The notes beneath the pieces were generated by a model, which ran no database searches, had not been told where the DNA came from, and saw only the letters and a program-made list of their open reading frames with translations. A stretch of 21,141 bases of DNA from a virus, in IMG/VR virus record IMGVR_UViG_3300009177_000128, positions 1 through 21,141 of that record; one strand, given 5' to 3'. Made by a program: the position numbers and the translations under genes. Below are positions 6,186 to 21,135 of the stretch, piece after piece. How positions within the stretch are numbered: position 1 is the first letter of the stretch; the number at the start of each line of letters is the position of its first letter.

Positions 6186-7214
6186 ATGAACGAAGAAATT
6201 GAAGTAAGTCAGCCGGAATCCCGGCGCGATATGTTGGCCGCAAGTTTTGATGATATTGAAACTGCGCAACCAGAAGCAAAACCAGTAATCGACCGTGCTA
6301 GGGATGAGCAGGGCAAATTTGCTCCTGAAGCTCCGAAGGTAGACGCGCCAAAAGAGGCGCTTATGCCTGATGAGCAACAGATGACTCAACGTGAGTTGAC
6401 GACCTGGCGCAAGGAATACCGTCCGATTCAGGATAAGTTGGGCCGTGGCGAAGCTCTAAGCCCAGATGAAGCACGAAAGCTTTACGAATACAACTTTGAG
6501 CGCGAGAAGCAATATGCCAGTGGCGTAGCAGCGTTTAAAGGCGAAGCTGAACAAGCTCGCGAGTTGACCAGTGTAATGAATGAGTTCATGCCGATCCTTC
6601 AGCAGAACAACATACAACCGGCAACATGGATTAAGAATCTTGGCAATGCTCATCGCACTCTAGTGATGGGCTCGCCAGAGCAGAAATTGCAGATGTTCAG
6701 CCAGCTTGCACAGGAATATGGGATTCCTCTGGCAGCGGTCGGACAAGCGCAGCAGGGCCAAGTTGATCCAGTTGCCATGCAATTGATGCAAGAGCTTCAA
6801 ATGATTAAGCAGCAGGTTAGTGGTGTGACTAACTGGCGCGAGCAACAAGAGCAAGCGGCAGTACACCAAGAATTGGCAAAGTTCGGGGATACCTCTAAGT
6901 ATCCGCACTTTGAGCAGGTACGCGGGGACATGGCTCTATTACTAGAGGCAGGTCGTGCCCAAGACCTTGATGACGCTTATGCGAAGGCTGTGCGCCTGTC
7001 TGATGATGCATGGAAGGCTGAGCAGGATCGAATTGCGCAGACCACGATGCAAAGCCAGCAACAGGCGAAAGCAGTATCTGTAGCTAAAGCGAAAGCGAGT
7101 GGTGGACAAGTGAAAAGTGCTACTCCTAGCACAATGATTCCAGTCCCAACCGCAAAGGATAGGCGTGGCGCACTGATGGAAGCTTTTGATTCCGTCGAGC
7201 CAGGCCGGGTTTGA
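6186..7214 (+). CDS. Head scaffolding protein, 342 aa
   Basis: Placed directly before the major capsid gene. The sequence is almost entirely helical, charged and Gln/Ala/Glu-rich, with no aromatic core, as expected of an internal scaffold that shapes the prohead and then leaves. Long Gln-rich helices run from about residue 110 to 300, with a more basic C-terminal tail (KAVSVAKAKASGGQVK at about 297-312). The two ends carry related motifs: RRDMLAASFDDIE at 13-25 and RRGALMEAFDSVE at 326-338. In phages such as P22 the scaffold's C-terminal helices contact the coat protein, so these may be coat-binding elements. Ribosome site AGAGGA precedes the ATG. No protease gene is visible in the window. 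Confidence 0.8.
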   Translation: MNEEIEVSQPESRRDMLAASFDDIETAQPEAKPVIDRARDEQGKFAPEAPKVDAPKEALMPDEQQMTQRELTTWRKEYRPIQDKLGRGEALSPDEARKLYEYNFEREKQYASGVAAFKGEAEQARELTSVMNEFMPILQQNNIQPATWIKNLGNAHRTLVMGSPEQKLQMFSQLAQEYGIPLAAVGQAQQGQVDPVAMQLMQELQMIKQQVSGVTNWREQQEQAAVHQELAKFGDTSKYPHFEQVRGDMALLLEAGRAQDLDDAYAKAVRLSDDAWKAEQDRIAQTTMQSQQQAKAVSVAKAKASGGQVKSATPSTMIPVPTAKDRRGALMEAFDSVEPGRV

Positions 7215-7215
7215 T

Positions 7216-7228
7216 CTGTCTAAAACAG
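7216..7228 (+). promoter_or_regulatory. Hairpin overlapping the major capsid RBS
   Basis: CTGT (7216-7219) pairs with ACAG (7225-7228) around a CTAAA loop, extendable by a T-G pair. The 3' arm runs into the ribosome site CAGGAG (7226-7231) for the ATG at 7239. It is short and could form by chance; reported because several neighbouring genes show a similar arrangement. Confidence 0.25.
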
Positions 7229-7238
7229 GAGAAATATT

Positions 7239-8240
7239 ATGGCTTTCGCCAACTCTCAAATTACCGATATTATCGCGACCACGATCCAGAGCCGCTCTGG
7301 TGAACTGGCCGACAACTTGACTAACAACAATGCACTTCTGCGTCGCCTGAAGGCACGCGGCAATGTACGACCGTTCTCCGGTGGTAACGTGATCTTGGAA
7401 GAGATCATGTACAACGATCCGAGCACGGATAACAGCGCATCCTACTCTGGCTATGAGGCGATTAACATTTCGCCAGATAGCCCGATTTCTGCTGCACAAT
7501 ACAGCATCAAGCAATATGCCGATGCTGTGACCATGTCCGGTCTGGAAATGCTGCAAAACAGCGGCAAGGAACAAATCATTTACCTGCTGGATGGTCGCAT
7601 GATGGTTTCCGAAGCTCGTCTGCTGAACCGTATCGGCTCTGATATCTATCAGGATGGTACTGGTAATGGCGGCAAGAATATCACTGACCTGGCGGCTGCT
7701 GTGCCTGACGTGCCTACTACCGGCACTTATGGCGGTATCGACCGCGCAACCTGGACTTTCTGGCAGCCGAAGAAGTTCTCCGGCGTGACTGATGGTGGCG
7801 GCGCAGTATCCGTAGCCAACATTCAGCAATACATGACCAAGCTCGCGCTGCAACTGGTTCGCGGTACTGACATGCCTGACCTGATCGTTGCTGATACCAA
7901 CTACTACGCTCTGTATGCTAACTCGCTGCAAGCAATTCAGCGTGTTACCTCGGATGGTGGTGGTGATGCTGGCGCTGGTTTCGCAAGCCTGAAATTCTAT
8001 GGTGGAGGCACTCAAGCCGATGTGGTTCTGGACGGTGGTATTGGTGCAGCAGCAACCGCAAACCACATGTGGTTCCTGAACACCAAATACATCTTCTTCC
8101 GTCCGCACAAAGACCGCAACTTCGTGCCAATCGGTGGCGAGCGTCAAGCCGTCAATCAGGATGCAATCGTGCGTCTGTATGGCTGGGCTGGCAATCTGAC
8201 TGTGTCGGGTTCTCAGTTCCAGGGCGTTTTGCTGAGCTGA
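7239..8240 (+). CDS. Major capsid protein, 333 aa
   Basis: Main shell protein of the head. Begins MAFANSQITDIIATTIQSRS, continues with ADNLTNNNALLRRLKARG (an N-terminal helical arm), and has the beta-rich PFSGGNVILEEIMY (about residues 46-59), a layout familiar from capsid proteins of podoviruses with adaptor/nozzle tails. Further support: its position after a scaffold; the central RLLNRIGSDIYQDGTGNGGK region; and the C-terminal NQDAIVRLYGWAGNLTVS. An HK97-type fold is expected from the family, not shown here. Codons are richer in GC and Leu CTG than neighbours (53% GC in the 60 bases from 7801), consistent with high expression. Strong AGGAG ribosome site. No cleaved pro-domain is obvious. 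Confidence 0.9.
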   Translation: MAFANSQITDIIATTIQSRSGELADNLTNNNALLRRLKARGNVRPFSGGNVILEEIMYNDPSTDNSASYSGYEAINISPDSPISAAQYSIKQYADAVTMSGLEMLQNSGKEQIIYLLDGRMMVSEARLLNRIGSDIYQDGTGNGGKNITDLAAAVPDVPTTGTYGGIDRATWTFWQPKKFSGVTDGGGAVSVANIQQYMTKLALQLVRGTDMPDLIVADTNYYALYANSLQAIQRVTSDGGGDAGAGFASLKFYGGGTQADVVLDGGIGAAATANHMWFLNTKYIFFRPHKDRNFVPIGGERQAVNQDAIVRLYGWAGNLTVSGSQFQGVLLS

Positions 8241-8295
8241 TTGCTTAAAACAATGCGGGAATGTACCATGTAATCTCTTAAATAAAGGAGGTTAT

Positions 8296-8748
8296 ATGGC
8301 ACGCCCAAGGTCTGATGTATATATGCGGTTCCAAAAGAAGGTAGAAATTATGCCTTCCGGTTGTCATGAATGGCGGTCGCAGATAAAACGTGATGGTTAC
8401 GGAAGATTTCATCACGAAGGAAGAAGTCAGTCCGCCCATAGAGTTGCATATCAACTTTATCTAGGAGAGATACCTGATGGTAAGGTGATTATGCATAAAT
8501 GTGACAATCGTATTTGTGTTAATCCAGATCATTTAAGTGTTGGTTCTTTGCAAGACAACATTAGGGATATGGATATAAAACAGAGGCGCGGAACAAAAAG
8601 CAAATTGACATATGCGCAAGTAGAGGAAATCAAAGAAATGGCTAAAGATAGATTTTCTCAGTTTGTAATTGCTGAAGCATATGGGGTACATCAGACTACA
8701 ATTAGCCGCATTGTTTTGGAAAAGACTACTAAATTCAAGGAGAAATAA
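8296..8748 (+). CDS. Free-standing HNH homing-type endonuclease, 150 aa
   Basis: Predicted DNA nicking or cutting enzyme. N-terminal part: GCHEWRSQIKRDGYGRF (about 22-38), AHRVAYQLYLGEIPDG (47-62) with H48, then VIMHKCDNRICVNPDHL (64-80), the core of the HNH_3 type, with H67, C69, D70, C74, N76 and H79. C-terminal part (about 103-140): KLTYAQVEEIKEM, then QFVIAEAYGVHQTTISRIV, a helix-turn-helix as in many phage HNH enzymes and in resolvases. Ribosome site AAAGGAGG (8284-8291) is very strong. Three hand-counted 60-base lines gave 42, 32 and 37% GC, lower than the capsid gene. It interrupts the capsid block, and its last codons contain the ribosome site of the next gene. No intron or intein signs were seen. 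Confidence 0.88.
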   Translation: MARPRSDVYMRFQKKVEIMPSGCHEWRSQIKRDGYGRFHHEGRSQSAHRVAYQLYLGEIPDGKVIMHKCDNRICVNPDHLSVGSLQDNIRDMDIKQRRGTKSKLTYAQVEEIKEMAKDRFSQFVIAEAYGVHQTTISRIVLEKTTKFKEK

Positions 8749-8749
8749 C

Positions 8750-9259
8750 ATGGCTTACACCATTCAAAATCCATTGGCAGGTTTCCAGCCAATCAACGTT
8801 ACCGATACGGTGAAGAATCACCCGATTGGCATGATCGTTAGCGCCACCGATCCTATCTATGGCGCTGGTGAGTTTATCTACCTGCTGGGTGTCGCTTCGA
8901 CCGTTGTCGGTTCGGTTGTTACCTATAATGGCAATACCACTGGTACGCCAACTGGTCAAACTGCACTGGCAACTAATGCGGCTAATCAGGCTCGCCCTAT
9001 TGCTGTCGCAATGTCGGCAAATGTGGCAACCCAATATGGCTGGTATCAAATCTACGGTAACGCTGTCTGCGCTACTAACGGCACTCTGGCTGCTGGTCCT
9101 GCACCTGTCTATTTGGCTGGGTCTGGTCAGCTTAGCTCTACTGCTGTTGCCGGTACTCAAGTTCTGGGTGCTATCAACGTAACAGCTACTGGCACTCCTG
9201 CTGCTAACCAGGCTGTGGTCGAAATCAATCGTCCTCACGCGCAAGGCGCAATCACCTGA
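8750..9259 (+). CDS. Capsid-associated (decoration-type) protein, 169 aa
   Basis: Starts MAYTIQNPLAGFQPINVTDT and is made of short strands rich in Ala, Thr, Gly and Val, with no charged helices until the end (EINRPHAQGAIT). Residues around VSATDPIYGAGEFIYLLG (about 27-44) and YGWYQIYGNAV (about 88-98) are a pattern common in small head proteins encoded just after the major capsid gene, where it may decorate or cement the shell. The frame is open upstream to 8669 inside the HNH gene, but ATG at 8750 is preferred: AAGGAG at 8737-8742, two bases after the HNH stop, and a start context (GGAGAAATAACATGGCTTAC) almost identical to that of the major capsid gene. Confidence 0.75.
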   Translation: MAYTIQNPLAGFQPINVTDTVKNHPIGMIVSATDPIYGAGEFIYLLGVASTVVGSVVTYNGNTTGTPTGQTALATNAANQARPIAVAMSANVATQYGWYQIYGNAVCATNGTLAAGPAPVYLAGSGQLSSTAVAGTQVLGAINVTATGTPAANQAVVEINRPHAQGAIT

Positions 9260-11309: not shown

Positions 11310-13766
11310 ATGTTCATTCCTCGCCAAAAACGACCGCCGCAACAACCCCCGGCACAAACGCTCACACTCCCTGCTCCTACTGGTGGACTGAATGCGCGTG
11401 ATGCGCTGGCCGCTATGCCGCCAACCGATGCAACGATCCTGACCAACTTTTTCCCGAATACTACGAGTGTAGAGTTGCGCAAGGGATTTGTGCGCTGGTC
11501 AACTGGCTATTCCGCACCTGTAGAAAGCCTGATGGCATATAACGCCGGAGCAACTAGCAAACTGTTTGCTGCTTCGGATGGCTCCTTCTTTGATGCTACG
11601 GCACAAGGTGCGCATGGGGCGGCTGTAGTGACTGGTTTGACTAATGCACGCTGGCAGCATGTGAACTTTACGACTCCTGGCGGATCATTCCTTTATGCCG
11701 TAAATGGCGCTGATTACCCGCGTATTTACGATGGTACGACATGGAAAGCTGTCTCTGGCCTAGGCTCGCAGACAATTAACACGATTACCTATTCCGGCAG
11801 CACTGCTACGGTCACCACCAGTGCGCCGCATCTGCTATCTACGGGGACGATTGTCAGCCTGACTGGCGCAACGCCAACAATGTATAACGGCGCTTATGTC
11901 ATCACTTCGACTGGCGCGAATACCTTTACTTATGTGATGGGCCAATATGCGATTGCATCAATCACATTCTCAGGTGCCACGGCAACGCTCACGACTATCT
12001 TCCCGCATGGGCTTAGCACTGGCAATAACGTCACTATTTCTGGTGCTGCGCCAGCAACGTACAATGCAACGTCGAATATTACTGTCACTAGTGCTACTAC
12101 CTTCACTTATACGATGGGTGGTACGCCAGCGACGAACGCGACGACTGTAGGTCAGTATGTTGTTAATCAGACGACTAGCAGCATTACCCGGGTTGGAACG
12201 CTCGCTACGCTCACTTCTGGCACTCCGCATAACTTGGTGACTGGTGATTTCGTTCTCATCTCTGGAGCTACACCAGCGGCCTTTAATGGCACATTCCAAG
12301 TGACTTCTACCGGTGCGACGACCTTCACCTATAACATGCAGAGCGATCCTGGCGCAAACGCTGCGCCGGTAGGTACTTTCGTTAAAGTCCCTGGCAGCAA
12401 TGCTACGATCACTGGCACTTATACGATTGTTCAACGTCCTGTGTCGATAACCTTTGTTGGCACGACTGCGACTTATACAACGAGCACGCCGCACAATCTG
12501 ACGACTGGCACGACGATTATCGTTTCTGGTGCTAATCCGAACGAATACAACGGCACATTCATTGTGACCGTGACGAATCCTACAACGTTCACTTACACAA
12601 TGAGCGCTGTACCGGCTACGAATGCGACTGTCGTTGGCACATTCATTGTTACGCCTGCTATTACTGGTGTAGATGCGCGTAATCTGATTCATCTGAATAT
12701 TTATGCCAATCGATTGTTCTTTATCGAAAAGAACACGCTGAAAGTATGGTTCCTGGCTCCCAATGCCATTTCTGGCGCGGCCCAAGTATTTGATTTCGGT
12801 TCATTGATGAATCTTGGCGGATCGTTATCCGCTATGGTTACATGGACTATAGATAATGCCGCAGGTATTCAAGAATATGCCTGCTTCATTTCGACAGAAG
12901 GTGAAGTGCTAATGTATACTGGCACTGACCCAAGCAATGCATCGAATTGGACTAAAGCAGGGCATTTCTTTATTGGCCGCCCTCCTGGCAGACGTTTTTA
13001 TACTCGCTATGGCTCCGATGTTATTCTTTTGACGACTGATGGCTTTACGGCGCTATCTAAATCACTATTAACTGATCGCTCTCAATTACGCGATTCTCTT
13101 AGCGATAAAATTTCAGTATTAGTTAATAGTGATACCGAAAACTATTTTAATAACTTTGGATTCCACGCGCTTTATTACCCAACTGGAAATAAAATATTCG
13201 TTAATATTCCGCAAGTACAAAATGCGGATCAATACCAATATGTGATGAACGCCGTGAATAATTCATGGTGCAAATTCACAAATTGGAATGCTAATACATT
13301 CGAGATTCTAGGAAATGATCTGTATTTTGGCTCAAATGTTATTGCCGGTTCTGCATATGTAGCTAAAGCAGATACAGGGTATTCGGATGATGGCGGGTAT
13401 ATTTTTGGAGAGGCAAAAACAGCCTTCCAATATTTCGGATCGCCAGGACGTAAGAAACATATCACCATGGCGCAACCTATTTTCAATCTCACTGGCAATA
13501 TGACTGCTACGTTAGGGATTGATATGGATTTCAATGATAATTATCCTATTGCAAATCCAACATTTAGCGGAACAGGCGGAACTTTATGGAATACGAAACT
13601 TTGGAATACGTTCCCATGGAGTCCTGGCGTTAGCACAAAAACAGATTGGCAAGGTTTGACAGGAGTCGGTAACGCTGGTGCTCTTCATATGCGAATTGTG
13701 AATAATATGAGTGCGACCAATTGGCAAGCAGTAACTTATGTATTCCGTTTAGGTGGTGTGCTATGA
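11310..13766 (+). CDS. Tail nozzle (tail tube B-type) protein with inserted repeats, 818 aa
   Basis: Forms the distal tail tube below the adaptor (role of P22 gp10 and T7 gp12). The N-terminus PAPTGGLNARDALAAMPPTD (about 21-40), then FFPNTTSVELRKGFVRW, is a clear signature of podovirus nozzle proteins, and KLFAASDGSFFDAT and FLYAVNGADYPRIYDG (about 127-142) are propeller-like repeats. After residue 454 (VDARNLIHLNIYANRLFFIE) the family body resumes. Between them, residues about 155-447 are four beta modules. From about 12,990 the DNA becomes much more AT-rich. The stop overlaps the start of the acetyltransferase gene (ATGA). Confidence 0.85.
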   Translation: MFIPRQKRPPQQPPAQTLTLPAPTGGLNARDALAAMPPTDATILTNFFPNTTSVELRKGFVRWSTGYSAPVESLMAYNAGATSKLFAASDGSFFDATAQGAHGAAVVTGLTNARWQHVNFTTPGGSFLYAVNGADYPRIYDGTTWKAVSGLGSQTINTITYSGSTATVTTSAPHLLSTGTIVSLTGATPTMYNGAYVITSTGANTFTYVMGQYAIASITFSGATATLTTIFPHGLSTGNNVTISGAAPATYNATSNITVTSATTFTYTMGGTPATNATTVGQYVVNQTTSSITRVGTLATLTSGTPHNLVTGDFVLISGATPAAFNGTFQVTSTGATTFTYNMQSDPGANAAPVGTFVKVPGSNATITGTYTIVQRPVSITFVGTTATYTTSTPHNLTTGTTIIVSGANPNEYNGTFIVTVTNPTTFTYTMSAVPATNATVVGTFIVTPAITGVDARNLIHLNIYANRLFFIEKNTLKVWFLAPNAISGAAQVFDFGSLMNLGGSLSAMVTWTIDNAAGIQEYACFISTEGEVLMYTGTDPSNASNWTKAGHFFIGRPPGRRFYTRYGSDVILLTTDGFTALSKSLLTDRSQLRDSLSDKISVLVNSDTENYFNNFGFHALYYPTGNKIFVNIPQVQNADQYQYVMNAVNNSWCKFTNWNANTFEILGNDLYFGSNVIAGSAYVAKADTGYSDDGGYIFGEAKTAFQYFGSPGRKKHITMAQPIFNLTGNMTATLGIDMDFNDNYPIANPTFSGTGGTLWNTKLWNTFPWSPGVSTKTDWQGLTGVGNAGALHMRIVNNMSATNWQAVTYVFRLGGVL
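11772..12650 (+). repeat. Four tandem beta-module repeats in the nozzle
   Basis: Modules lie at about residues 155-212, 216-285, 290-358 and 378-447 of the nozzle. Shared consensus: (S/N)IT..G..ATLTT..PH.L.TG..V.ISGA.P..YNGT..VT..(T)TFTY.M, and in the last three also PA.NAT.VG.(Y/F)(V/I)V. The first copy is shorter and lacks this last part. A spacer of about 19 residues separates modules 3 and 4. Copies have diverged at the DNA level, so they are not recent perfect duplications. They resemble surface beta domains found on phage tails and adhesins. Confidence 0.85.
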
Positions 13767-14200
13767 AGCTTTTCATTGCCCATGATGATATCGGGCATGA
13801 GAGCATTGCTAGATGGGTTTGCGAGCGGATTCCTCATGTCGAATCGTTCTCCAATATGAAGACCATTGGAGTAATGGACGAGGAAGGAAATCCATTAGGT
13901 GCTGTTGTTTATCATGAATACCGCGATCATGATATTCAAATGTCTTGTGCTGCTGATTCCTCAAGATGGCTGACTAGGAATATACTAGCGAAAATATTTG
14001 AATATCCTTTTTCGCAGCTTCAATGCAATAGAGTTACGGCACTGACTCCATTGAGAAACAGGCATACTCGCGAGTTTCTTGAGAAAACGGGATTCAAGCA
14101 AGAAGGTATTATGCGGCGAGGTTTTAATGATGATGACTGCGTAATCTATGGAATGCTGCGCGATGAATGTAAATGGATAGAGAGGAAAAATCATGGGTAA
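13763..14200 (+). CDS. GNAT-family N-acetyltransferase, 145 aa
   Basis: Predicted to transfer an acetyl group from acetyl-CoA to a protein or small amine. Visible features: the strand GNPLGAVVYHEYRDHDIQMS (about 43-62), the helix SSRWLTRNILAKIFEYPF, the strand NRVTALTPLRNRHTREFL (about 89-106) and LEKTGFKQEGIMRRGF (about 106-121), the C-terminal pattern of RimJ/RimL-like GNAT enzymes. The frame is open back to 13721, but the ATG at 13763 overlaps the nozzle stop (ATGA), so translation is probably coupled. It also overlaps the next gene by 8 bases. Such enzymes recur among tail genes of podoviruses; the substrate is unknown. Length fits a single GNAT domain. Confidence 0.85.
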   Translation: MKLFIAHDDIGHESIARWVCERIPHVESFSNMKTIGVMDEEGNPLGAVVYHEYRDHDIQMSCAADSSRWLTRNILAKIFEYPFSQLQCNRVTALTPLRNRHTREFLEKTGFKQEGIMRRGFNDDDCVIYGMLRDECKWIERKNHG

Positions 14201-15527
14201 AAGTAGTCCAAAAGCTCCGGCTCCGCCTGATCCTAATGTAGTCGCAGCCGCGCAGACGCAACAAAATAAAGATACAGCAATTGCCAATGCAGCGCTGAAC
14301 CGCATCGATCAAGTTACTCCATGGGGTAATCTGACCTATACCCAAAATGGGGTTGATGCCAACGGTATTCCAAAATATACGCAGACTGTTGCATTATCGC
14401 CTGAACAGCAAAAGCTATTGGATAGCCAGAATGGTATTAGCCAAGCTTTAGCTAATCTTGGCCTTAGTCAACTTAATACGACTACACAGACTCTTGGTCA
14501 GCCATTCAATTACAATGGCGCACCAAATCAAGTAAACAGCCTTGGTAATTTCAATCCTGTAAGCTATGGGTCTATTCAAAACGATGTTGATGTAAGCAAG
14601 GTTCCTTCTTTAATCGGAGGCCAGGATCTTGTTAAAGATTTACAGACCCAACGTGACGCTCTTTATAACCAACAAACGGCTTTTCTAGATCCACAATGGA
14701 AACAAGATCAATCGGATCTTGAAAATAAACTTGTACAACAAGGTATTGCTCAAAATTCTGATGCTTGGAATCGTGCGGTAGGAGATTTCAGCAGGAATAA
14801 AGAATTCGCATATGGTAATGCACGTAATAGTGCAATTACTGGAGGTGGTGCTGAGCAATCAAGGTTATTTGGTATTGGTTTAGCATCAAATCAAAATGCT
14901 TATAATCAGGCACTGCAAAATGCGCAATTCCACAATTCTGCTCAAGCGCAGGGATTTGGTCAAGCATTTCAAAATAGCCAAGCAGGATTCAATCAGAACC
15001 TTGCAAATGCTAATTTGCAGAATCAAGGACGTAATCAATATATCAATGAGCAGAATTATTTGCGGCAACAGCCATTGAATGAACTAAATGCATTGCGTTC
15101 TGGTTCTCAAGTAACTGCACCTCAATTCTCTGGTGTACCGCAAGCGTTGGTTGGGAATACCGATGTGACTGGTCTTTATAACAATCAATATCAGGGGCAA
15201 TTGGCTGCATATAATGCTCAGCAAGCAAGTAATAATTCTTTGACCAGTGGTCTATTTGGACTTGGCTCAGCATTTGCAGGCTCTGGAACGGGATCTGCCT
15301 TGATTGGTCAAGGTTTGTCTGCATTGGCCGCGTTCTCTGATCGCCGCCTAAAAACTGATATTGAGCGCATTGGCACTCATGATTTGGGTATCGGTCTTTA
15401 TAAGTGGAATTATGTATGGGGACAGCCTGGGGTTGGTGTGATGGCCGATGAGGTTGAGAATATTCGTCCTGATGCGGTTATCATGCATCCGAGTGGATAT
15501 AAGATGGTGAACTATGGAGCCCTGTGA
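14193..15527 (+). CDS. Probable ejection protein with a C-terminal S74-like chaperone segment, 444 aa
   Basis: Residues 1-20 (MGKSSPKAPAPPDPNVVAAA), then NALNRIDQVTPWGNLTY, are a start seen in internal virion proteins of podoviruses. The middle (about 140-340) is extremely Asn/Gln-rich helical sequence with no fibre-like domain. The end (residues 381-444) contains FSDRRLKTDIERIG, GLYKWNYVWG and GVMADEVENIRPDAV, the core of the intramolecular chaperone family named peptidase S74; S382 and K387 sit where the family's self-cleavage Ser and Lys are expected. It starts 8 bases inside the GNAT gene, with GAGGAAA upstream, and its stop overlaps the next ATG (TGATG). It could be annotated as a tail fibre from the S74 hit alone; position argues for an ejected protein. 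Confidence 0.72.
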   Translation: MGKSSPKAPAPPDPNVVAAAQTQQNKDTAIANAALNRIDQVTPWGNLTYTQNGVDANGIPKYTQTVALSPEQQKLLDSQNGISQALANLGLSQLNTTTQTLGQPFNYNGAPNQVNSLGNFNPVSYGSIQNDVDVSKVPSLIGGQDLVKDLQTQRDALYNQQTAFLDPQWKQDQSDLENKLVQQGIAQNSDAWNRAVGDFSRNKEFAYGNARNSAITGGGAEQSRLFGIGLASNQNAYNQALQNAQFHNSAQAQGFGQAFQNSQAGFNQNLANANLQNQGRNQYINEQNYLRQQPLNELNALRSGSQVTAPQFSGVPQALVGNTDVTGLYNNQYQGQLAAYNAQQASNNSLTSGLFGLGSAFAGSGTGSALIGQGLSALAAFSDRRLKTDIERIGTHDLGIGLYKWNYVWGQPGVGVMADEVENIRPDAVIMHPSGYKMVNYGAL

Positions 15528-17134
15528 TGCCAAATACCGTTAATACCATCAGCTTCGGACCAAGCCAGCAGGATTTGCAGGCTCAGCAAATTGATTTGCA
15601 ACGCCGACAGCAGTTTGCTGATGCGTTGCGATCTCAATCTTTGCAGCCTCTTGAGTCGCAAATGGTGTCAGGACGTGTTGTGCCTACTAGTCCATGGCTT
15701 GGCGCAATCAAACTCGCTCAAGCTGCGCTGGCGGGTCATGAGCAAAGGCAAAATGCTGCTGATGAAGCGGCATTAGGCCAAGCATCTGCGCAGCGGCAAG
15801 CCGCAGCATTGCGAGCATTAGCTCCTGCTGGGACGTTCGATCAAAATATGCAAGCTGCCCCACGTCAGGCCGTTCAACTTGGAATGGGCCTGACCGATGA
15901 AAGTATGGGCGAAGTTCCGCCACAAACTCCTGCTGCGCCGCAAGTAGATCAAGCTACGCGCTCTCGATGGGCAAAGATCCTGGCTGCGAATAACTATGAT
16001 CCTGCTCTAGCTAAGAAGCTGATTGAGAACGAACTGACTACGCCTGAAGAAACTCGCAATCTTCTGGCTCAGGGCATTGATCCAGTCGCATATGGAAAGG
16101 CTCGCCTTGGGAAAGAACAAGCGGCCGGCGTTACTAATGTCGCTGCTGGAACGAGTGTATACAACCCAAGTACAGGTCAATTTGTCGCTGCTGCGCCAGA
16201 TTTTGCTAATGGTGTTCAAGGAAGTTTTGGCCCTAATGGCCCACAAATTAGCCGTATTCAAGGCTCTGAAGTATTGCCGCAAATCGCCGGGGAAAAAGCT
16301 CGGCAAGAAGCGGCAGGACGTGCCGGATTCAATACGATCACGGTTAATACTCCGAATGGTCCTGTACTTCTTACTGAAGAACAAGCAGCTAGGATGGCTG
16401 GTGGTGGGCAACAACCTCAATCTAATGCGCCAGTCAATTTCAAAGCTTCTAATGGTGTATCCATCAATATGGCGGGCCGCACTCCACAGCAGATCATTCA
16501 AGCGGCACAAGCCAGCGGTGATCCACAAGTAATGCAAGCTGTCGGCGAATGGATGCGCAGCGGTGGACAACAGCCTCAAGGTCAGCCAGGTATCCCGCTG
16601 ATGTCCAAAGCGCAAGAAGCCATGCAAGTAGGACAGGCTGAAAATCAAGTAGCACTTGCGCGTGATCTGGCAAAGAATGCTCAATCGCCTGAATCTCAAC
16701 AAAAGATTGCTGATGCTCAATCAGTAGTTGGTTTGCTTCAGGAAGCTAGTCCGTATATCTCAAGTGCCACTAGCAGCACTGTAGGCAATCTGCGCGATGC
16801 TGCATTGGGATTGGTTGGTAAATCTACTGGTGCTGGTCAGGACGCTGCTCGATTAGCTGCAATCGGCGGTCAATTAGTGTCCAAAATGCCGAAAATGTCC
16901 GGCCCTCAATCTGATAAAGACGTTCTGCTTTACAAGGAAATGGCTGGTCGAATTGGAGATCCAACTGTTCCATCTGATATCAAGCAAGCGGCAGCAGATA
17001 CGATCCTTCGTTTGAATCAAAAGTATCTTGAACGTAATCAAGGCAGCATGGCAACTCAAGCACTGAAACAGACGCAAGGGCCGGGAAATGCTCCGAGTCT
17101 TGACGATTTGCTGAATAAATATGGAGGCCGTTAA
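15527..17134 (+). CDS. Probable internal/ejection protein, 535 aa
   Basis: Ala/Gln-rich helical protein without enzyme motifs. N-terminal coiled coil (about 13-40, QQDLQAQQIDLQRRQQFADA); helical WAKILAANNYDPALAKKLI (about 147-165); a central Gly/Gln/Pro-rich stretch with GGQQPQ repeats (about 290-350); and a C-terminal domain with MPKMSGPQSDKDVLLYKEMA (about 452-471), then GRIGDPTVPSDIKQAAADTI, a segment I associate with phage internal virion proteins. Lies between two other candidate ejection proteins; overlaps one base at each end (TGATG and TAATG). A GTG one codon earlier is possible but lies inside the previous gene's end. A DNA-transfer role is inferred from context. Confidence 0.68.
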   Translation: MPNTVNTISFGPSQQDLQAQQIDLQRRQQFADALRSQSLQPLESQMVSGRVVPTSPWLGAIKLAQAALAGHEQRQNAADEAALGQASAQRQAAALRALAPAGTFDQNMQAAPRQAVQLGMGLTDESMGEVPPQTPAAPQVDQATRSRWAKILAANNYDPALAKKLIENELTTPEETRNLLAQGIDPVAYGKARLGKEQAAGVTNVAAGTSVYNPSTGQFVAAAPDFANGVQGSFGPNGPQISRIQGSEVLPQIAGEKARQEAAGRAGFNTITVNTPNGPVLLTEEQAARMAGGGQQPQSNAPVNFKASNGVSINMAGRTPQQIIQAAQASGDPQVMQAVGEWMRSGGQQPQGQPGIPLMSKAQEAMQVGQAENQVALARDLAKNAQSPESQQKIADAQSVVGLLQEASPYISSATSSTVGNLRDAALGLVGKSTGAGQDAARLAAIGGQLVSKMPKMSGPQSDKDVLLYKEMAGRIGDPTVPSDIKQAAADTILRLNQKYLERNQGSMATQALKQTQGPGNAPSLDDLLNKYGGR

Positions 17135-18930
17135 TGGCTGATCTGGCACAACTGGAAACTGCACTTCGTAATGCTGATGCTGCGGGTGATTCGCAAGCTG
17201 CACAGATGATTGCAGCAGAGATTCGCCACCAACGTTCGGCCTCTGTCATTCAGCCTGCCCAACAAGCGGCATATGACCCAACGCAAGGCATGAGCACTAG
17301 TGAGAAACTACTTGCTGGCGCTGGTAAAGCCTTCGTTGATCTTGGCAGGGGGGCAGGTCAACTTGCACGGAGCGCTTTACCTGAATCAGCCGCGAATCGC
17401 TTAGGGCTTCCAACTGCTGCCGATATCGAAGAATCGCGCCGACTTGATGCTCCATTGATGCGCACTGGTGCAGGAACCATTGGCAATGTCGCTGGCTCTG
17501 TTGCTGCCGCTCTTCCTACCGCATTCATCCCAGGAGCTAATACGATTGGTGGTGCAGCGCTATTAGGAGCCGCACAAGGCGCTTTGCAACCGGTAGGTGA
17601 AAAGGATAGCCGACTGCAAAATATCGGCACTGGCGCTCTTTTCGGGGCCGCTGTGCCCGCTGCTATCAAGACTGCCCAAATCGGCAAAGCAGCGCTGATT
17701 GATCCTATCACTGATGCCGGTCGTGCTCGGATCGTTGCTAAGGCATTGCGCCGCGCTGCGTCCAATCCTGAACAAGCTGCGCAAAATCTTGCAACTCGCA
17801 CTGCTGCAACGCCCGGATTCCAGGCGACTGCCGGACAATTGGCTGATGATGCTGGTTTAGCTTCGCTTGAGCGTGCTGCCCGCGCTATTCAACCGGCAGA
17901 GTTTGGGGATATCGATACTTCGCAACAGGCCGCATTGGTTAATGCTTTGCGTGGTGTAGCTGGCACGCCAGAACAGCGTGCCGCAGCAGTTACCGCACGA
18001 GAAACGGCTACGGCTCCATTGTATGAAGCCGCTACGAAGGCCACATTCAATCCTACGCCTGAATTTGATGCATTGCTGCAGCGCCCATCCATGCAGGCTG
18101 CAACTCGCGCTGCCACTGATCTTGCTGCCGAGCGTGGTGGCACTTTTGGCGCGACTTTACCTAATGGGCAGCCAGGATATACAGGTCAAGCTCTACATGA
18201 TCTGAAAATGGGGCTTGATACTGCAATCATGGACCCGCAGCAGGGATTCATGGGCGCTAAAAAGGCTGCTGCTGATGCAACTCGTAATGAGTTCCTTCAG
18301 CAACTTGAGGCGCAGATTCCTGAATATGGGCAAGCTCGCCAAACGTTCGCAGAAATGAGCAAGCCGATCAGCCAACAGGATATTGGACAGGAACTGTATA
18401 ACCGTTTCGTTCCTGCTCTCGCTGATACTGGTGGCGTCCCATTCAAATCCCGCGCTGATGCATTGGCCCAGGCGCTGAGGAATGGCGATCAACTGGCGAA
18501 GAATGTCACAGGCATGAAATCGGCTACGCTGAAAAACATCATGACGCCGGAACAGATTGGTTCGTTAGAAGGTGTTGTGTCCGATGCTGCAATGCGTGCG
18601 GCTGCTCAAAATGCAGGGCGTGGAGTTGGATCAGACACCGTACAAAAAATGTCTATGTCGAATCTGATTAACGAAGCTGGTTTGCCTAGCTGGATTGGCT
18701 CGATTGCACGCGTTCCAGGCGGTTATGCCAAAGCAGCAGGTAATTTCCTGTATGGGCAGAGCGATGAGGCTATGCGGAACATTCTCGCCGATACATTGCG
18801 CGATCCGCAGAAAGCAGCCGAAGCATTGAGGAATGCTGGTGTCCCGCCAAGTAAGATTGCTGAAATCCTTCGTGTTGGTGCTCAAGGATCAGCGTTTGCT
18901 GTTCCTGCCATCGTTCAGGGGCAGCAGTAA
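17134..18930 (+). CDS. Probable membrane-inserting ejection protein, 598 aa
   Basis: The N-terminal helix LAQLETALRNADAAGDSQAA (about 4-23) recurs in phage DNA-injection proteins. Residues about 112-150 and 164-180 are Gly/Ala-rich hydrophobic stretches (AGSVAAALPTAFIPGANTIG and GTGALFGAAVPAAIK) that could cross a membrane. The rest is helical and Ala-rich, with a C-terminal segment IGSIARVPGGYAKAAGNFLY at about 523-542. Role by analogy with P22 gp16 and T7 internal proteins: released from the virion to help DNA cross the envelope. ATG overlaps the previous stop by one base, with GGAGG at about 17123-17127. Its last 42 bases overlap an antisense ORF. No lytic transglycosylase motif was seen. 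Confidence 0.68.
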   Translation: MADLAQLETALRNADAAGDSQAAQMIAAEIRHQRSASVIQPAQQAAYDPTQGMSTSEKLLAGAGKAFVDLGRGAGQLARSALPESAANRLGLPTAADIEESRRLDAPLMRTGAGTIGNVAGSVAAALPTAFIPGANTIGGAALLGAAQGALQPVGEKDSRLQNIGTGALFGAAVPAAIKTAQIGKAALIDPITDAGRARIVAKALRRAASNPEQAAQNLATRTAATPGFQATAGQLADDAGLASLERAARAIQPAEFGDIDTSQQAALVNALRGVAGTPEQRAAAVTARETATAPLYEAATKATFNPTPEFDALLQRPSMQAATRAATDLAAERGGTFGATLPNGQPGYTGQALHDLKMGLDTAIMDPQQGFMGAKKAAADATRNEFLQQLEAQIPEYGQARQTFAEMSKPISQQDIGQELYNRFVPALADTGGVPFKSRADALAQALRNGDQLAKNVTGMKSATLKNIMTPEQIGSLEGVVSDAAMRAAAQNAGRGVGSDTVQKMSMSNLINEAGLPSWIGSIARVPGGYAKAAGNFLYGQSDEAMRNILADTLRDPQKAAEALRNAGVPPSKIAEILRVGAQGSAFAVPAIVQGQQ

Positions 18931-19056
18931 GAAGGATTTGAGAGCACAAGGCCGCATATAATGCTGAACTAGCAATTTAATCGGCAATGCAATAAACCCA
19001 AGAATAGCCAAGGCTATGAATGGACGAAGAATTAAAGCAATGAGCCACGGTTCCAT
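18889..19056 (-). CDS. Small antisense membrane protein, 55 aa
   Basis: Read on the minus strand, ATG 19056 to TGA 18889 gives a start MEPWLIALILRPFIALAILG, one strong hydrophobic segment (about 4-30) broken by R11, then LPIKLLVQHYM and a basic, Leu-rich tail. This alternation of membrane helix and amphipathic basic tail is not what a random shadow frame gives, and I recall similar short membrane proteins in other phages. It fills most of the largest gap (182 bases) of the late block. It is convergent with the ejection gene and overlaps it by 42 bases. A TTG at 19095 would add 13 residues. The ribosome site (CTGGATAC) is weak and no clear promoter is seen. A role in lysis timing or exclusion is only conceivable. 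Confidence 0.55.
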   Translation of the reverse strand: MEPWLIALILRPFIALAILGFIALPIKLLVQHYMRPCALKSFLLLPLNDGRNSKR

Positions 19057-19112
19057 AAGTATCCAGATGGAATTACAATGACAGCAGTTTAGCAAAGAAA
19101 GCGAGAATTGCC

Positions 19113-20360
19113 ATGCCTTATAACGGCACCGGAGTATTCAACCGAATTTATCAATGGGTACAAGATGCCGCTAATGGTATTTTTGTTGATGCAACTCGCA
19201 CCGATACTGATAGCAATGATATTGCCGCTGGCTTGACCAATTGTGTAACTCGGGATGGGCAATCCCCATGGCTTGCTAATATTCCTGCTGGTGGTTTTAA
19301 GATTACCGGGTTGGCAGCTGGTGTAAATACTACTGACTCAACAAATTACACTCAAGTATTCAATAGCCCCGCATTTAACAGTCCGACTATTGTTACTGAT
19401 CCGGCACTTACAGATAATAGCTCTCTGATTCCTTCAACGCGATGGGTCAATCAAAAAGCATTTCAAGCTGCATTGCCAGCACAAACGCTTGGCTTCCTTC
19501 GGTCTGATGGAACAAACGCAGCATTTACGCAAACGCATACTGGTTATGCGCAAAATGAGGTTAAAGGCGCTGATATTGCTTCTGCTCCCAATATTAATCT
19601 AACAACTGCCACAGGCAATCTAGTTCATGTAACTGGCACTACAAATATCACAGCAATTACTATTCCTTCTGGAGCGGAAAGAACCGTGGTATTTGATGGA
19701 ATTCTTACTCTGGTTAATAGTGCCAGCCTGATTCTTCCATCAAATGCTAATATCACTACTGCTGCTGGTGACACTATGCGCGTTCGTGGTGATGGTTTAA
19801 ATGCTCGTGTAGTAAGTTATGAAACTTTTACCGGCAGAGCGTTAGTAGTTACTACTCCTGGGTTGGTTAAAATCGCTGGTCCTACTACTCCTGCTGCTGC
19901 TGCAACCGCTGATTTCCTAAGCTTGTTCAGCGGTACATATGACAATTACCGAATCATCATTGACGGCATCACTCCTGCTGCGGATGATTCTTTGGTTTTA
20001 CGAGTTGCAGTCTCCAATGCGGCAGATTCCACAAGTAATTATTATGGCGGTCTTGTTAGTGGTACGGTGATAACTGCTGCTGCTAGTTCGGCCCCAATCA
20101 CTGGAGGCACAACTACAACGGCTGGTAGTGGCGCATGTTTCACAATTGATATCCTGAACGCAAATGATTCAGTTCGGGCAAAAACAATTGTTGCTTCTGG
20201 CGCATCGCAACGAAATGCAACGCCTGGGTTCATTGTCACTCAGCAAAATACACAATTCAACCGTGCTAATGTATTGACTGGGTTCCAATTGCTATGGGCT
20301 ACTGCAAGTAATTTTAGCGCTGTGGGAACGATTACAGTTTATGGATATTCCAAAGTTTGA
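19113..20360 (+). CDS. Tail fibre protein, 415 aa
   Basis: Receptor-contacting appendage. The N-terminal domain (residues 1-75) starts MPYNGTGVFNRIYQWVQDAA and includes DATRTDTDSNDIAAGL and NIPAGGFKITGLAAG, the virion-attachment domain of many podovirus tail fibres. A middle beta region (about 150-240) has INLTTATGNLVHVTGTTNIT and LPSNANITTAAGDTMRVRGD, a domain shared by phage fibre and head-fibre proteins. The C-terminal domain (about 265-415) begins FLSLFSGTYDNYRIIIDGI and is a lectin-like or galactose-binding-like beta domain common at fibre ends; it probably sets host range. No self-cleaving chaperone is present. The ribosome site is weak (GCGAG). The 183 bases before it hold the antisense gene. 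Confidence 0.86.
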   Translation: MPYNGTGVFNRIYQWVQDAANGIFVDATRTDTDSNDIAAGLTNCVTRDGQSPWLANIPAGGFKITGLAAGVNTTDSTNYTQVFNSPAFNSPTIVTDPALTDNSSLIPSTRWVNQKAFQAALPAQTLGFLRSDGTNAAFTQTHTGYAQNEVKGADIASAPNINLTTATGNLVHVTGTTNITAITIPSGAERTVVFDGILTLVNSASLILPSNANITTAAGDTMRVRGDGLNARVVSYETFTGRALVVTTPGLVKIAGPTTPAAAATADFLSLFSGTYDNYRIIIDGITPAADDSLVLRVAVSNAADSTSNYYGGLVSGTVITAAASSAPITGGTTTTAGSGACFTIDILNANDSVRAKTIVASGASQRNATPGFIVTQQNTQFNRANVLTGFQLLWATASNFSAVGTITVYGYSKV

Positions 20361-20635: not shown

Positions 20636-20743
20636 ATGAAAAAGCTGAACATGGCTACAGGTGGTGGCGGTCAACAACGTCCGCCAGATGAAAAGACTTC
20701 TTCGATTCCAGTGAAAACACAAACTCCGAAGAAAACGAAATGA
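20636..20743 (+). CDS. Small basic/polar peptide, 35 aa
   Basis: ATG 20636 to TGA 20741-20743 encodes a 35-residue peptide starting MKKLNMATGGGGQQRPPDEK and ending with the Lys/Thr-rich PKKTK. It has a good ribosome site (AAAGGAAAA at 20625-20633), and its stop overlaps the next ATG (ATGA at 20740-20743), the arrangement of a real coupled gene. There is no hydrophobic segment and the peptide is probably unstructured. No family recognised. It might serve mainly to couple translation of the next gene. Confidence 0.6.
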   Translation: MKKLNMATGGGGQQRPPDEKTSSIPVKTQTPKKTK

Positions 20744-21135
20744 ACGGTTGGCGCTCGCGTTTATTGCTTATCGCTGCTTTTTTCCTGGCGGCAAAAGCAC
20801 ATGATTTGATCATGCTAGGGTGTGCGAATACACCCCAGATGATGGCTATCTATCATGGAAGCGCGGGCACTGTAGATTTGCTTCTGTTGTATGTCGCTCA
20901 GCATCACATCAGCGGAAGATTATGCGATCACATACAGGCCTCATGCATTGCCTCTGTGATCATTAATTTCGTAGGTTATCGCCTATATATGGCCTATTCC
21001 CCGCCAGATTTTTACAATTATCTGATTGCGGGATTAAGCTATGTGCAATATCTACGATTACTTTATGTGGGCCGCCACGATGCTGACTATTACGAGCACG
21101 CTGTGGTTCCTGGCGCTCCTAGTGTCAGGGCTTAG
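20740..21135 (+). CDS. Membrane protein with four hydrophobic segments, 131 aa
   Basis: Hydrophobic segments at about residues 5-27 (RLLLIAAFFLAAKAHDLIML), 42-56 (AGTVDLLLLYVAQHH), 67-86 (ASCIASVIINFVGYRLYMAY) and 91-110 (FYNYLIAGLSYVQYLRLLYV), with a polar C-terminal tail of about 20 residues. Likely in the inner membrane. It starts inside the previous stop and is followed, in another frame, by a second hydrophobic ORF that overlaps its end. Being last in the fibre block and near a possible spanin-like start, it may belong to a lysis region, for instance as a holin-like protein, but four segments of this type are not diagnostic and it lacks a recognised holin motif. Confidence 0.65.
   Translation: MNGWRSRLLLIAAFFLAAKAHDLIMLGCANTPQMMAIYHGSAGTVDLLLLYVAQHHISGRLCDHIQASCIASVIINFVGYRLYMAYSPPDFYNYLIAGLSYVQYLRLLYVGRHDADYYEHAVVPGAPSVRA

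What the first reader, a model, noticed from the sequence alone, without database searches (positions are those of the whole stretch)
18889..19056. Antisense single-helix membrane protein inside the late operon
All other genes supported here run on the + strand. This minus-strand ORF encodes a coherent membrane helix plus basic tail, fills the largest gap of the block between the ejection genes and the tail fibre, and overlaps the ejection gene by only 42 bases. Expressed against the late transcript, it could be an early or lysogenic function, for example exclusion or lysis control, or its RNA could be antisense to the ejection gene's 3' end.
Basis: partly seen in the sequence, partly recalled or inferred. 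Interest (0 to 1): 0.55.

Follow-up and report, generated by a model that had tools for sequence, protein, structure and literature searches.

The report
Conserved antisense phage membrane protein gene
A tiny membrane-protein gene, read backwards against a phage's late genes and sharing DNA with the end of a DNA-injection gene, is real and conserved across many short-tailed phages, and most likely helps an infected cell keep out further phages.

Summary
Observation confirmed; the ORF is a real gene. The 55-aa minus-strand ORF (18889-19056) has relatives in 49 counted records (46 IMG/VR contigs, Rhodoferax phage P26218, Xanthomonas phage PBR31, podovirus MW202557; 38 distinct peptides), unannotated in the three named ones and matching no library family. 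In 49 of 49 it is antisense and overlaps the 3' end of a long ejection-side ORF. In 38 of 38 peptides the overlap has the same phase; in 37 the neighbour's stop codon is read as a Leu of the antisense protein, and TGA is depleted there (1 of 20 against 36 of 79). Nine of 21 upstream clusters carry a -10-like hexamer exactly 6 nt before the ATG (0 of 2000 shuffles), mostly without Shine-Dalgarno sites, suggesting a leaderless mRNA; the window's own clade lacks that spacing. Product: one N-terminal membrane helix with invariant Lys/Arg-Pro, basic tail. The slot matches P22 sieA, but the proteins are unrelated. Best reading: an early inner-membrane exclusion protein acting on DNA ejection. Function is inferred, not shown.

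The parts
18889..19056 (-). antisense membrane-protein gene, 55 aa, ATG start
18958..19050 (-). codons 3-33: single predicted helix holding the membrane segment, with Lys/Arg11 and invariant Pro12
   Evidence: AlphaFold2 mean pLDDT 70.9, blocks 82/89/78 over residues 1-30
18892..18957 (-). codons 34-55: basic, Leu-rich C-terminal tail (low-confidence model)
18889..18930 (.). overlap shared with the 3' end of the ejection-side gene, in codon register
18928..18930 (+). ejection-side gene stop codon TAA, read on the minus strand as Leu43 (TTA) of the antisense protein
   Evidence: (L001, identical peptide, codon 43)
19072..19077 (-). candidate -10-like hexamer TGTAAT, 15 nt before the ATG, conserved in the window clade (weak; no full sigma-70 match found)
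17134..18930 (+). convergent ejection-side gene, 598 aa (DNA-ejection role inferred from position and from a relative annotated 'putative DNA transfer protein')
19113..20360 (+). divergent neighbour, 415-aa tail-fibre-type virion protein
   Evidence: phrog_13989 at its N-terminus

Best explanation
A genuine protein-coding gene for a small inner-membrane protein (one N-terminal helix, basic tail predicted cytoplasmic). Shown by computation: purifying selection, strict antisense placement, fixed-phase overlap with the ejection-side gene, and in about half of the lineages a -10-like element placed for a leaderless mRNA. Inferred: host RNA polymerase transcribes it alone, early after DNA entry and, in the temperate members, from the prophage; strong late transcription running the other way then silences it. 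Most likely function (inferred): superinfection exclusion. The protein sits in the inner membrane and obstructs the ejection proteins of an incoming related phage, working like P22 SieA although it is not a SieA homologue. That would explain why it stays bound to the ejection gene while tail fibres next to it are exchanged.
For: Selection: synonymous excess in the minus frame. Antisense placement with overlap of 18-57 nt (168 in PBR31) in 49 of 49 records. Same phase in 38 of 38 distinct peptides, stop codon read as Leu in 37. TGA depleted at this stop: 1 of 20 against 36 of 79 other long late-strand ORFs, Fisher p 5.5e-4. A -10-like hexamer (at least 4 of 6) exactly 6 nt before the ATG in 9 of 21 upstream clusters, mean 0.74 per position, 0 of 2000 shuffles; best -35 averages at offsets 29 and 30 of those scanned (20 to 41), as expected for a 17-18 nt spacer; Shine-Dalgarno match of at least 4 nt in 3 of 21 antisense starts against 12 of 18 tail-fibre starts, with no -10 peak at 6 nt at the latter. 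Membrane segment in 38 of 38. P22 sieA lies in the same slot and orientation, directly 3' of ejection gene 16; [quoted passage not shown] Ejection-side homology is shared with P26218 and PBR31, whereas the window's portal finds neither at E 1e-10.
Against: No expression or phenotype data. The window's own clade lacks the exact -10 spacing, and a full sigma-70 scan of 18850-19250 found 0 sites. P26218 and the window clade seem lytic, where exclusion is less obviously useful, though T4 Imm is a lytic-phage precedent (PMC11436027, passages). No similarity to SieA, and one helix against the three predicted for SieA. The window's ejection-side protein shows no significant BLASTP match to P22 gp16. 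Three distant ejection homologues lack the gene: DSL-LC05, MW202879 and MW202573. Staying with the ejection gene is also expected from the physical overlap alone.
Confidence: 0.4

Rival explanations
1. Early host-takeover or surface-modifying membrane protein: it binds a host inner-membrane enzyme or channel (for example in lipopolysaccharide or pilus assembly) and alters receptor or physiology, with no direct contact with ejection proteins.
For: Same expression logic and membrane topology; a conserved charged residue beside Pro in the helix suggests a partner helix. It suits lytic phages as well as temperate ones.
Against: Does not explain the constant association with the ejection-side gene beyond physical overlap.
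Confidence: 0.25
2. Lysis control: an antiholin-like or pinholin-like protein made from the opposite strand.
For: Small, one helix, basic tail; one of 15 scanned members touches a holin PHROG weakly (phrog_11161, E 0.35).
Against: Close relative G010 has a GH108 endolysin and a GTA_holin_3TM protein on the late strand; PBR31 has annotated holin, lysozyme and spanin. The antisense promoter would be opposed by late transcription just when lysis is timed (inference).
Confidence: 0.12
3. A small accessory of the ejection machinery, made on the opposite strand but used with the ejection proteins, for example as a membrane receptor or chaperone for the channel.
For: Fixed overlap and joint inheritance with the ejection-side gene.
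Against: Opposite-strand expression conflicts with co-production (inference); three distant ejection homologues manage without it.
Confidence: 0.1
4. The RNA matters, not the protein: an antisense transcript that limits the 3' end of the ejection mRNA.
For: Convergent, overlapping layout; late-strand terminator-like hairpins just upstream of the antisense ATG in 9 of 21 clusters against 1.05 in shuffles.
Against: Synonymous excess and a conserved hydrophobic protein at about 40% identity; stop-codon choice of the ejection-side gene follows the antisense Leu codon.
Confidence: 0.05

Closest known systems
P22 SieA (superinfection exclusion, immI region)
   Same: Same genomic slot: minus strand, directly 3' of the last ejection gene (gene 16) and before the tailspike gene; inner-membrane protein (PMC10883804, passages); own promoter annotated.
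   Different: 162-164 aa with three predicted transmembrane segments (PMC10883804, passages) against about 55 aa with one; no profile similarity; no overlap with gene 16 in P22 (22 nt gap); SieA is a prophage function, while this family also occurs in phages without integrase.
T4 Imm (DNA-injection exclusion in a lytic phage)
   Same: Exclusion at DNA entry by a phage protein (review PMC11436027, passages).
   Different: Not compared by sequence here; unrelated phage type; size and helices of Imm only recalled.
Leaderless phage mRNA such as lambda cI from PRM (recalled, no call)
   Same: Promoter placed so that transcription starts at the ATG, with no Shine-Dalgarno site.
   Different: cI is a repressor; here a membrane protein on the late-antisense strand, and the arrangement is inferred from sequence only.

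Membership tests
P22 SieA family | sequence or profile similarity to SieA | tested here: not met
   hhalign of A6 with SieA: probability 0.15, 1 column
P22 SieA family | gene on the opposite strand directly 3' of the ejection genes | tested here: met
P22 SieA family | inner-membrane protein with three transmembrane segments | tested here: not met
   one helix only; SieA prediction from PMC10883804
P22 SieA family | blocks DNA entry, with escape mutations in ejection genes | not testable with these tools
   needs infection assays
Phage holins and antiholins | match to a holin family | tested here: not met
   P0001: no PHROG or Pfam match; 15 members scanned in four libraries, best holin hit E 0.35 in one member
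Phage holins and antiholins | sole candidate holin of its genome | tested here: not met
   GTA_holin_3TM and GH108 in G010; holin annotated in PBR31
phrog_2734 (unknown function) | family-wide profile match | tested here: not met
   1 of 15 members at E 0.0049; 1 of 10 records, and it rings in 7 of 14 cellular controls
Leaderless genes | -10 hexamer about 6 nt before the ATG and no Shine-Dalgarno site | tested here: inconclusive
   met at family level: 9 of 21 clusters at 6 nt, SD in only 3 of 21; not met at that spacing in the window's own clade
Leaderless genes | transcription start at the A of the ATG | not testable with these tools
   needs 5'-end mapping

The most novel reading that the evidence does not exclude
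A previously unnamed family of leaderless, constitutively expressed one-helix membrane proteins whose coding sequence is interlocked with the 3' end of the phage DNA-ejection gene that it acts against, so that an exclusion protein and its own target are inherited as one unit in both lytic and temperate podophages.
Probability: 0.25. Interest if true: 0.75.

Novelty: new variant of a known kind. Interest (0 to 1): 0.52.

Why it matters
The gene is missing from the annotation of P26218, PBR31 and MW202557, presumably because it is short, antisense and overlaps a longer gene. It is a conserved protein with a recurring promoter pattern, so a phage-host pair already in culture (P26218 and Rhodoferax IMCC26218) could test directly whether lytic podophages carry SieA-like exclusion aimed at DNA ejection. 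The stop-codon signature (Leu codon opposite the neighbour's stop) is also a clean case of one gene constraining the stop-codon choice of another.

Tried and rejected
Family libraries: PHROGs, Pfam, NCBIfam and PADLOC gave no family-wide match. phrog_2734 looked promising (E 0.0049 in one member) but was dropped. The genome-contig scan used a single rigid peptide pattern and gave one relative in a cyanobacterial MAG, 16 residues long (HMM E 0.002 among the eight loci scanned together), which I treat as chance; it is weak evidence about prophages either way. The serine-recombinase search found none in 22 records. The T7-type RNA polymerase search was silent, but so were its controls, so absence is not shown. 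Similarity of the window's ejection-side proteins to P22 gp16 and gp20: none significant by BLASTP; weak XaxB hits in the structure database (E 0.012) were not pursued. L031, a weak relative (19 residues by tblastn, HMM E 2.9e-5), was left out of all counts. L055 was left out because its contig ends before the gene's 3' end. The structure model is one helix, so no fold search was run. Paper searches touching this gene or layout listed nothing that describes it by title or abstract start; I saw listings for all, passages of PMC10883804, PMC10975493, PMC11436027 and PMC4657236, and no whole text.

Full report
What is there. The minus-strand ORF at 18889-19056 encodes 55 aa, overlaps the + strand ORF 17134-18930 by 42 bases and lies in a 182-base gap before the ORF 19113-20360. 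ORFs of this size are common in the window by chance (97 of at least 50 aa, 61 of them on the minus strand by my count), so presence alone says little. The window is itself a 21,141-base virus record. PHROGs profiles on 20 + strand ORFs place it in a virion-structure block: terminase, portal, major head protein, an HNH endonuclease, tail protein, an amidase-type large protein, an acetyltransferase, virion proteins and a tail-fibre-type protein.

Relatives. Six answered scans of viral contigs and tblastn on named phages gave 49 distinct records that I counted as members after a profile search and removal of repeated loci of one contig: 46 IMG/VR contigs, Rhodoferax phage P26218, Xanthomonas phage PBR31 and podovirus MW202557 (MW202655 and NC_029061, which look like second copies by length and match, were not counted). 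They hold 38 distinct peptides of 46-62 aa, 116 aa in PBR31. Two records were set aside: L031 (weak) and L055 (contig ends before the locus). Closest relatives of the ejection-side gene: 9 of 10 loci carry the ORF, the tenth being L055. The gene was not found in P22, VvAW1, BUCT555, Bradyrhizobium phage ppBjS10J-1, MW202489, DSL-LC05 or the 10-kb Sf6 stretch examined (of VvAW1, 38,000 of 38,682 bases), nor in the ejection regions of MW202879 and MW202573; of these, DSL-LC05, MW202879 and MW202573 have a related ejection-side protein.

It is a protein. Between the window and close relatives nearly all changes are synonymous in the minus frame (7 synonymous and 0 nonsynonymous against L005 over codons 1-42; 22.0 and 12.0 against L006; 19.3 and 18.7 against L008). 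Against L010 the signal is weaker (20.5 and 43.5; dS 1.82, dN 0.70). Across 37 aligned members Pro12 is invariant, preceded by Lys or Arg in the rows shown, and Pro25, Lys40 and Leu43 are nearly invariant. All 38 peptides have a 19-residue stretch favourable to membrane insertion, and the net charge after that stretch is +4 to +13, which by the positive-inside rule (established knowledge) puts the tail in the cytoplasm. AlphaFold2 gives a helix at residues 3-33 and a short one at 39-43, mean pLDDT 70.9.

It is locked to the ejection-side gene. In 49 of 49 records the ORF is antisense to a long ORF whose 3' end it overlaps, by 18-57 nt (168 in PBR31), always a multiple of three. In 38 of 38 distinct peptides the neighbour's stop is in codon register with the antisense frame; in 37 it is TAA or TAG, read as Leu, in 36 of them within the Leu-rich tail motif (PBR31's lies further on, at codon 62), and in one (L038) it is TGA, read as Ser. 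In cluster representatives this stop is TGA in 1 of 20 genes, against 36 of 79 other late-strand ORFs of at least 200 codons (Fisher p 5.5e-4). The 21st representative's ejection ORF is cut to 156 codons and fell below the length limit. Convergent overlaps may show phase biases in general (search listing only, PMC2174442), so the constant phase mainly shows common descent; the stop-codon bias is the sign of constraint. The fibre on the other side differs: the window's fibre protein had no tblastn match in L010 or in the P26218 locus, while its ejection-side protein matched both at 38% and 35% identity.

How it is read. I clustered the 38 upstream regions into 21 groups. A hexamer with at least 4 of 6 matches to TATAAT ends exactly 6 nt before the ATG in 9 of 21 groups (6 of them with 5 of 6); the mean over 100 offsets is 0.74, and 0 of 2000 shuffles reached the observed average at any offset from 0 to 40. 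Matches to TTGACA are highest at offsets 29 and 30 of the 20-41 scanned. A Shine-Dalgarno match of 4 or more is present in 3 of 21 antisense starts and in 12 of 18 tail-fibre starts from the same loci (three loci had no usable tail-fibre ATG), and the latter show no peak at 6 nt (1 of 18). This is the layout of a leaderless mRNA from a host-type promoter. The clusters are related by descent, so they are not fully independent. Against it for the present case: the window clade has no such hexamer at 6 nt, only a conserved TGTAAT 15 nt upstream, a shape that also reads as TACAAT on the + strand and could serve the fibre gene instead, and the consensus scan of 18850-19250 found no promoter. PBR31 and L077 have a Shine-Dalgarno sequence instead. 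In 9 of 21 clusters a late-strand terminator-like hairpin lies within 110 nt upstream of the antisense ATG, against 1.05 expected (mononucleotide shuffles; maximum 4); the window clade has none.

Lifestyle. A tyrosine integrase match at E 0.01 or better occurs in 10 of 22 records examined, 9 over the curated cut-off. The window (a fragment), its close relatives G009, G010, G011 and G022, and the P26218 group have none. PBR31 is described as temperate from its genes (PMC10975493, passages) and P26218 as lytic (PMC4657236, passages). So the gene cannot serve lysogeny alone.

Function. [quoted passage not shown] The present protein is not a SieA relative, is a third of its size and has one helix. 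I therefore say that it probably works like SieA, not that it is a SieA. Lysis control is disfavoured by lysis genes elsewhere. A general host-takeover role is the main rival.

Verdict. Observation confirmed; gene real (about 0.97, my estimate); own early promoter likely at family level (about 0.75, my estimate); SieA-like exclusion plausible (0.4).

Noticed in passing
window 8296-8748 (+): HNH endonuclease gene directly after the major head protein gene, probably a homing endonuclease in the structural block.
   Followed up: no
window 13721-14200 and 14193-15527 (+): Acetyltransferase-type protein (phrog_4470) followed by a virion protein with a C-terminal S74 endosialidase-chaperone domain, upstream of the ejection-side genes; BUCT555 has an acetyltransferase next to a tail-fibre-domain protein in the same order.
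   Followed up: partly
window 6942-8147 (-): A 401-aa open frame antisense to the major head protein gene; G010 has a 448-aa one at 7467-8813. Possibly a codon-usage shadow.
   Followed up: no
L002 5855-6159: About 300 extra bases in the ejection-side gene between query residues 350 and 354 without closing the frame (702 open codons).
   Followed up: no
window 19113-20360 against L002, L003, L004, L008 and L009: Tail-fibre protein matched only over its first 139-246 residues in these relatives, suggesting exchange of receptor-binding ends.
   Followed up: no
L049 (PBR31) 11929-12001: Two hairpins with T-runs on the late strand appear to lie between the tail spike start and the antisense ATG; a Shine-Dalgarno-like GGAGG sits within the one nearest the ATG (the second hairpin seen by eye).
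   Followed up: partly
window 20740-21135 (+): 131-aa hydrophobic protein without a Pfam match, with a 131-aa counterpart before the endolysin gene in G010.
   Followed up: no
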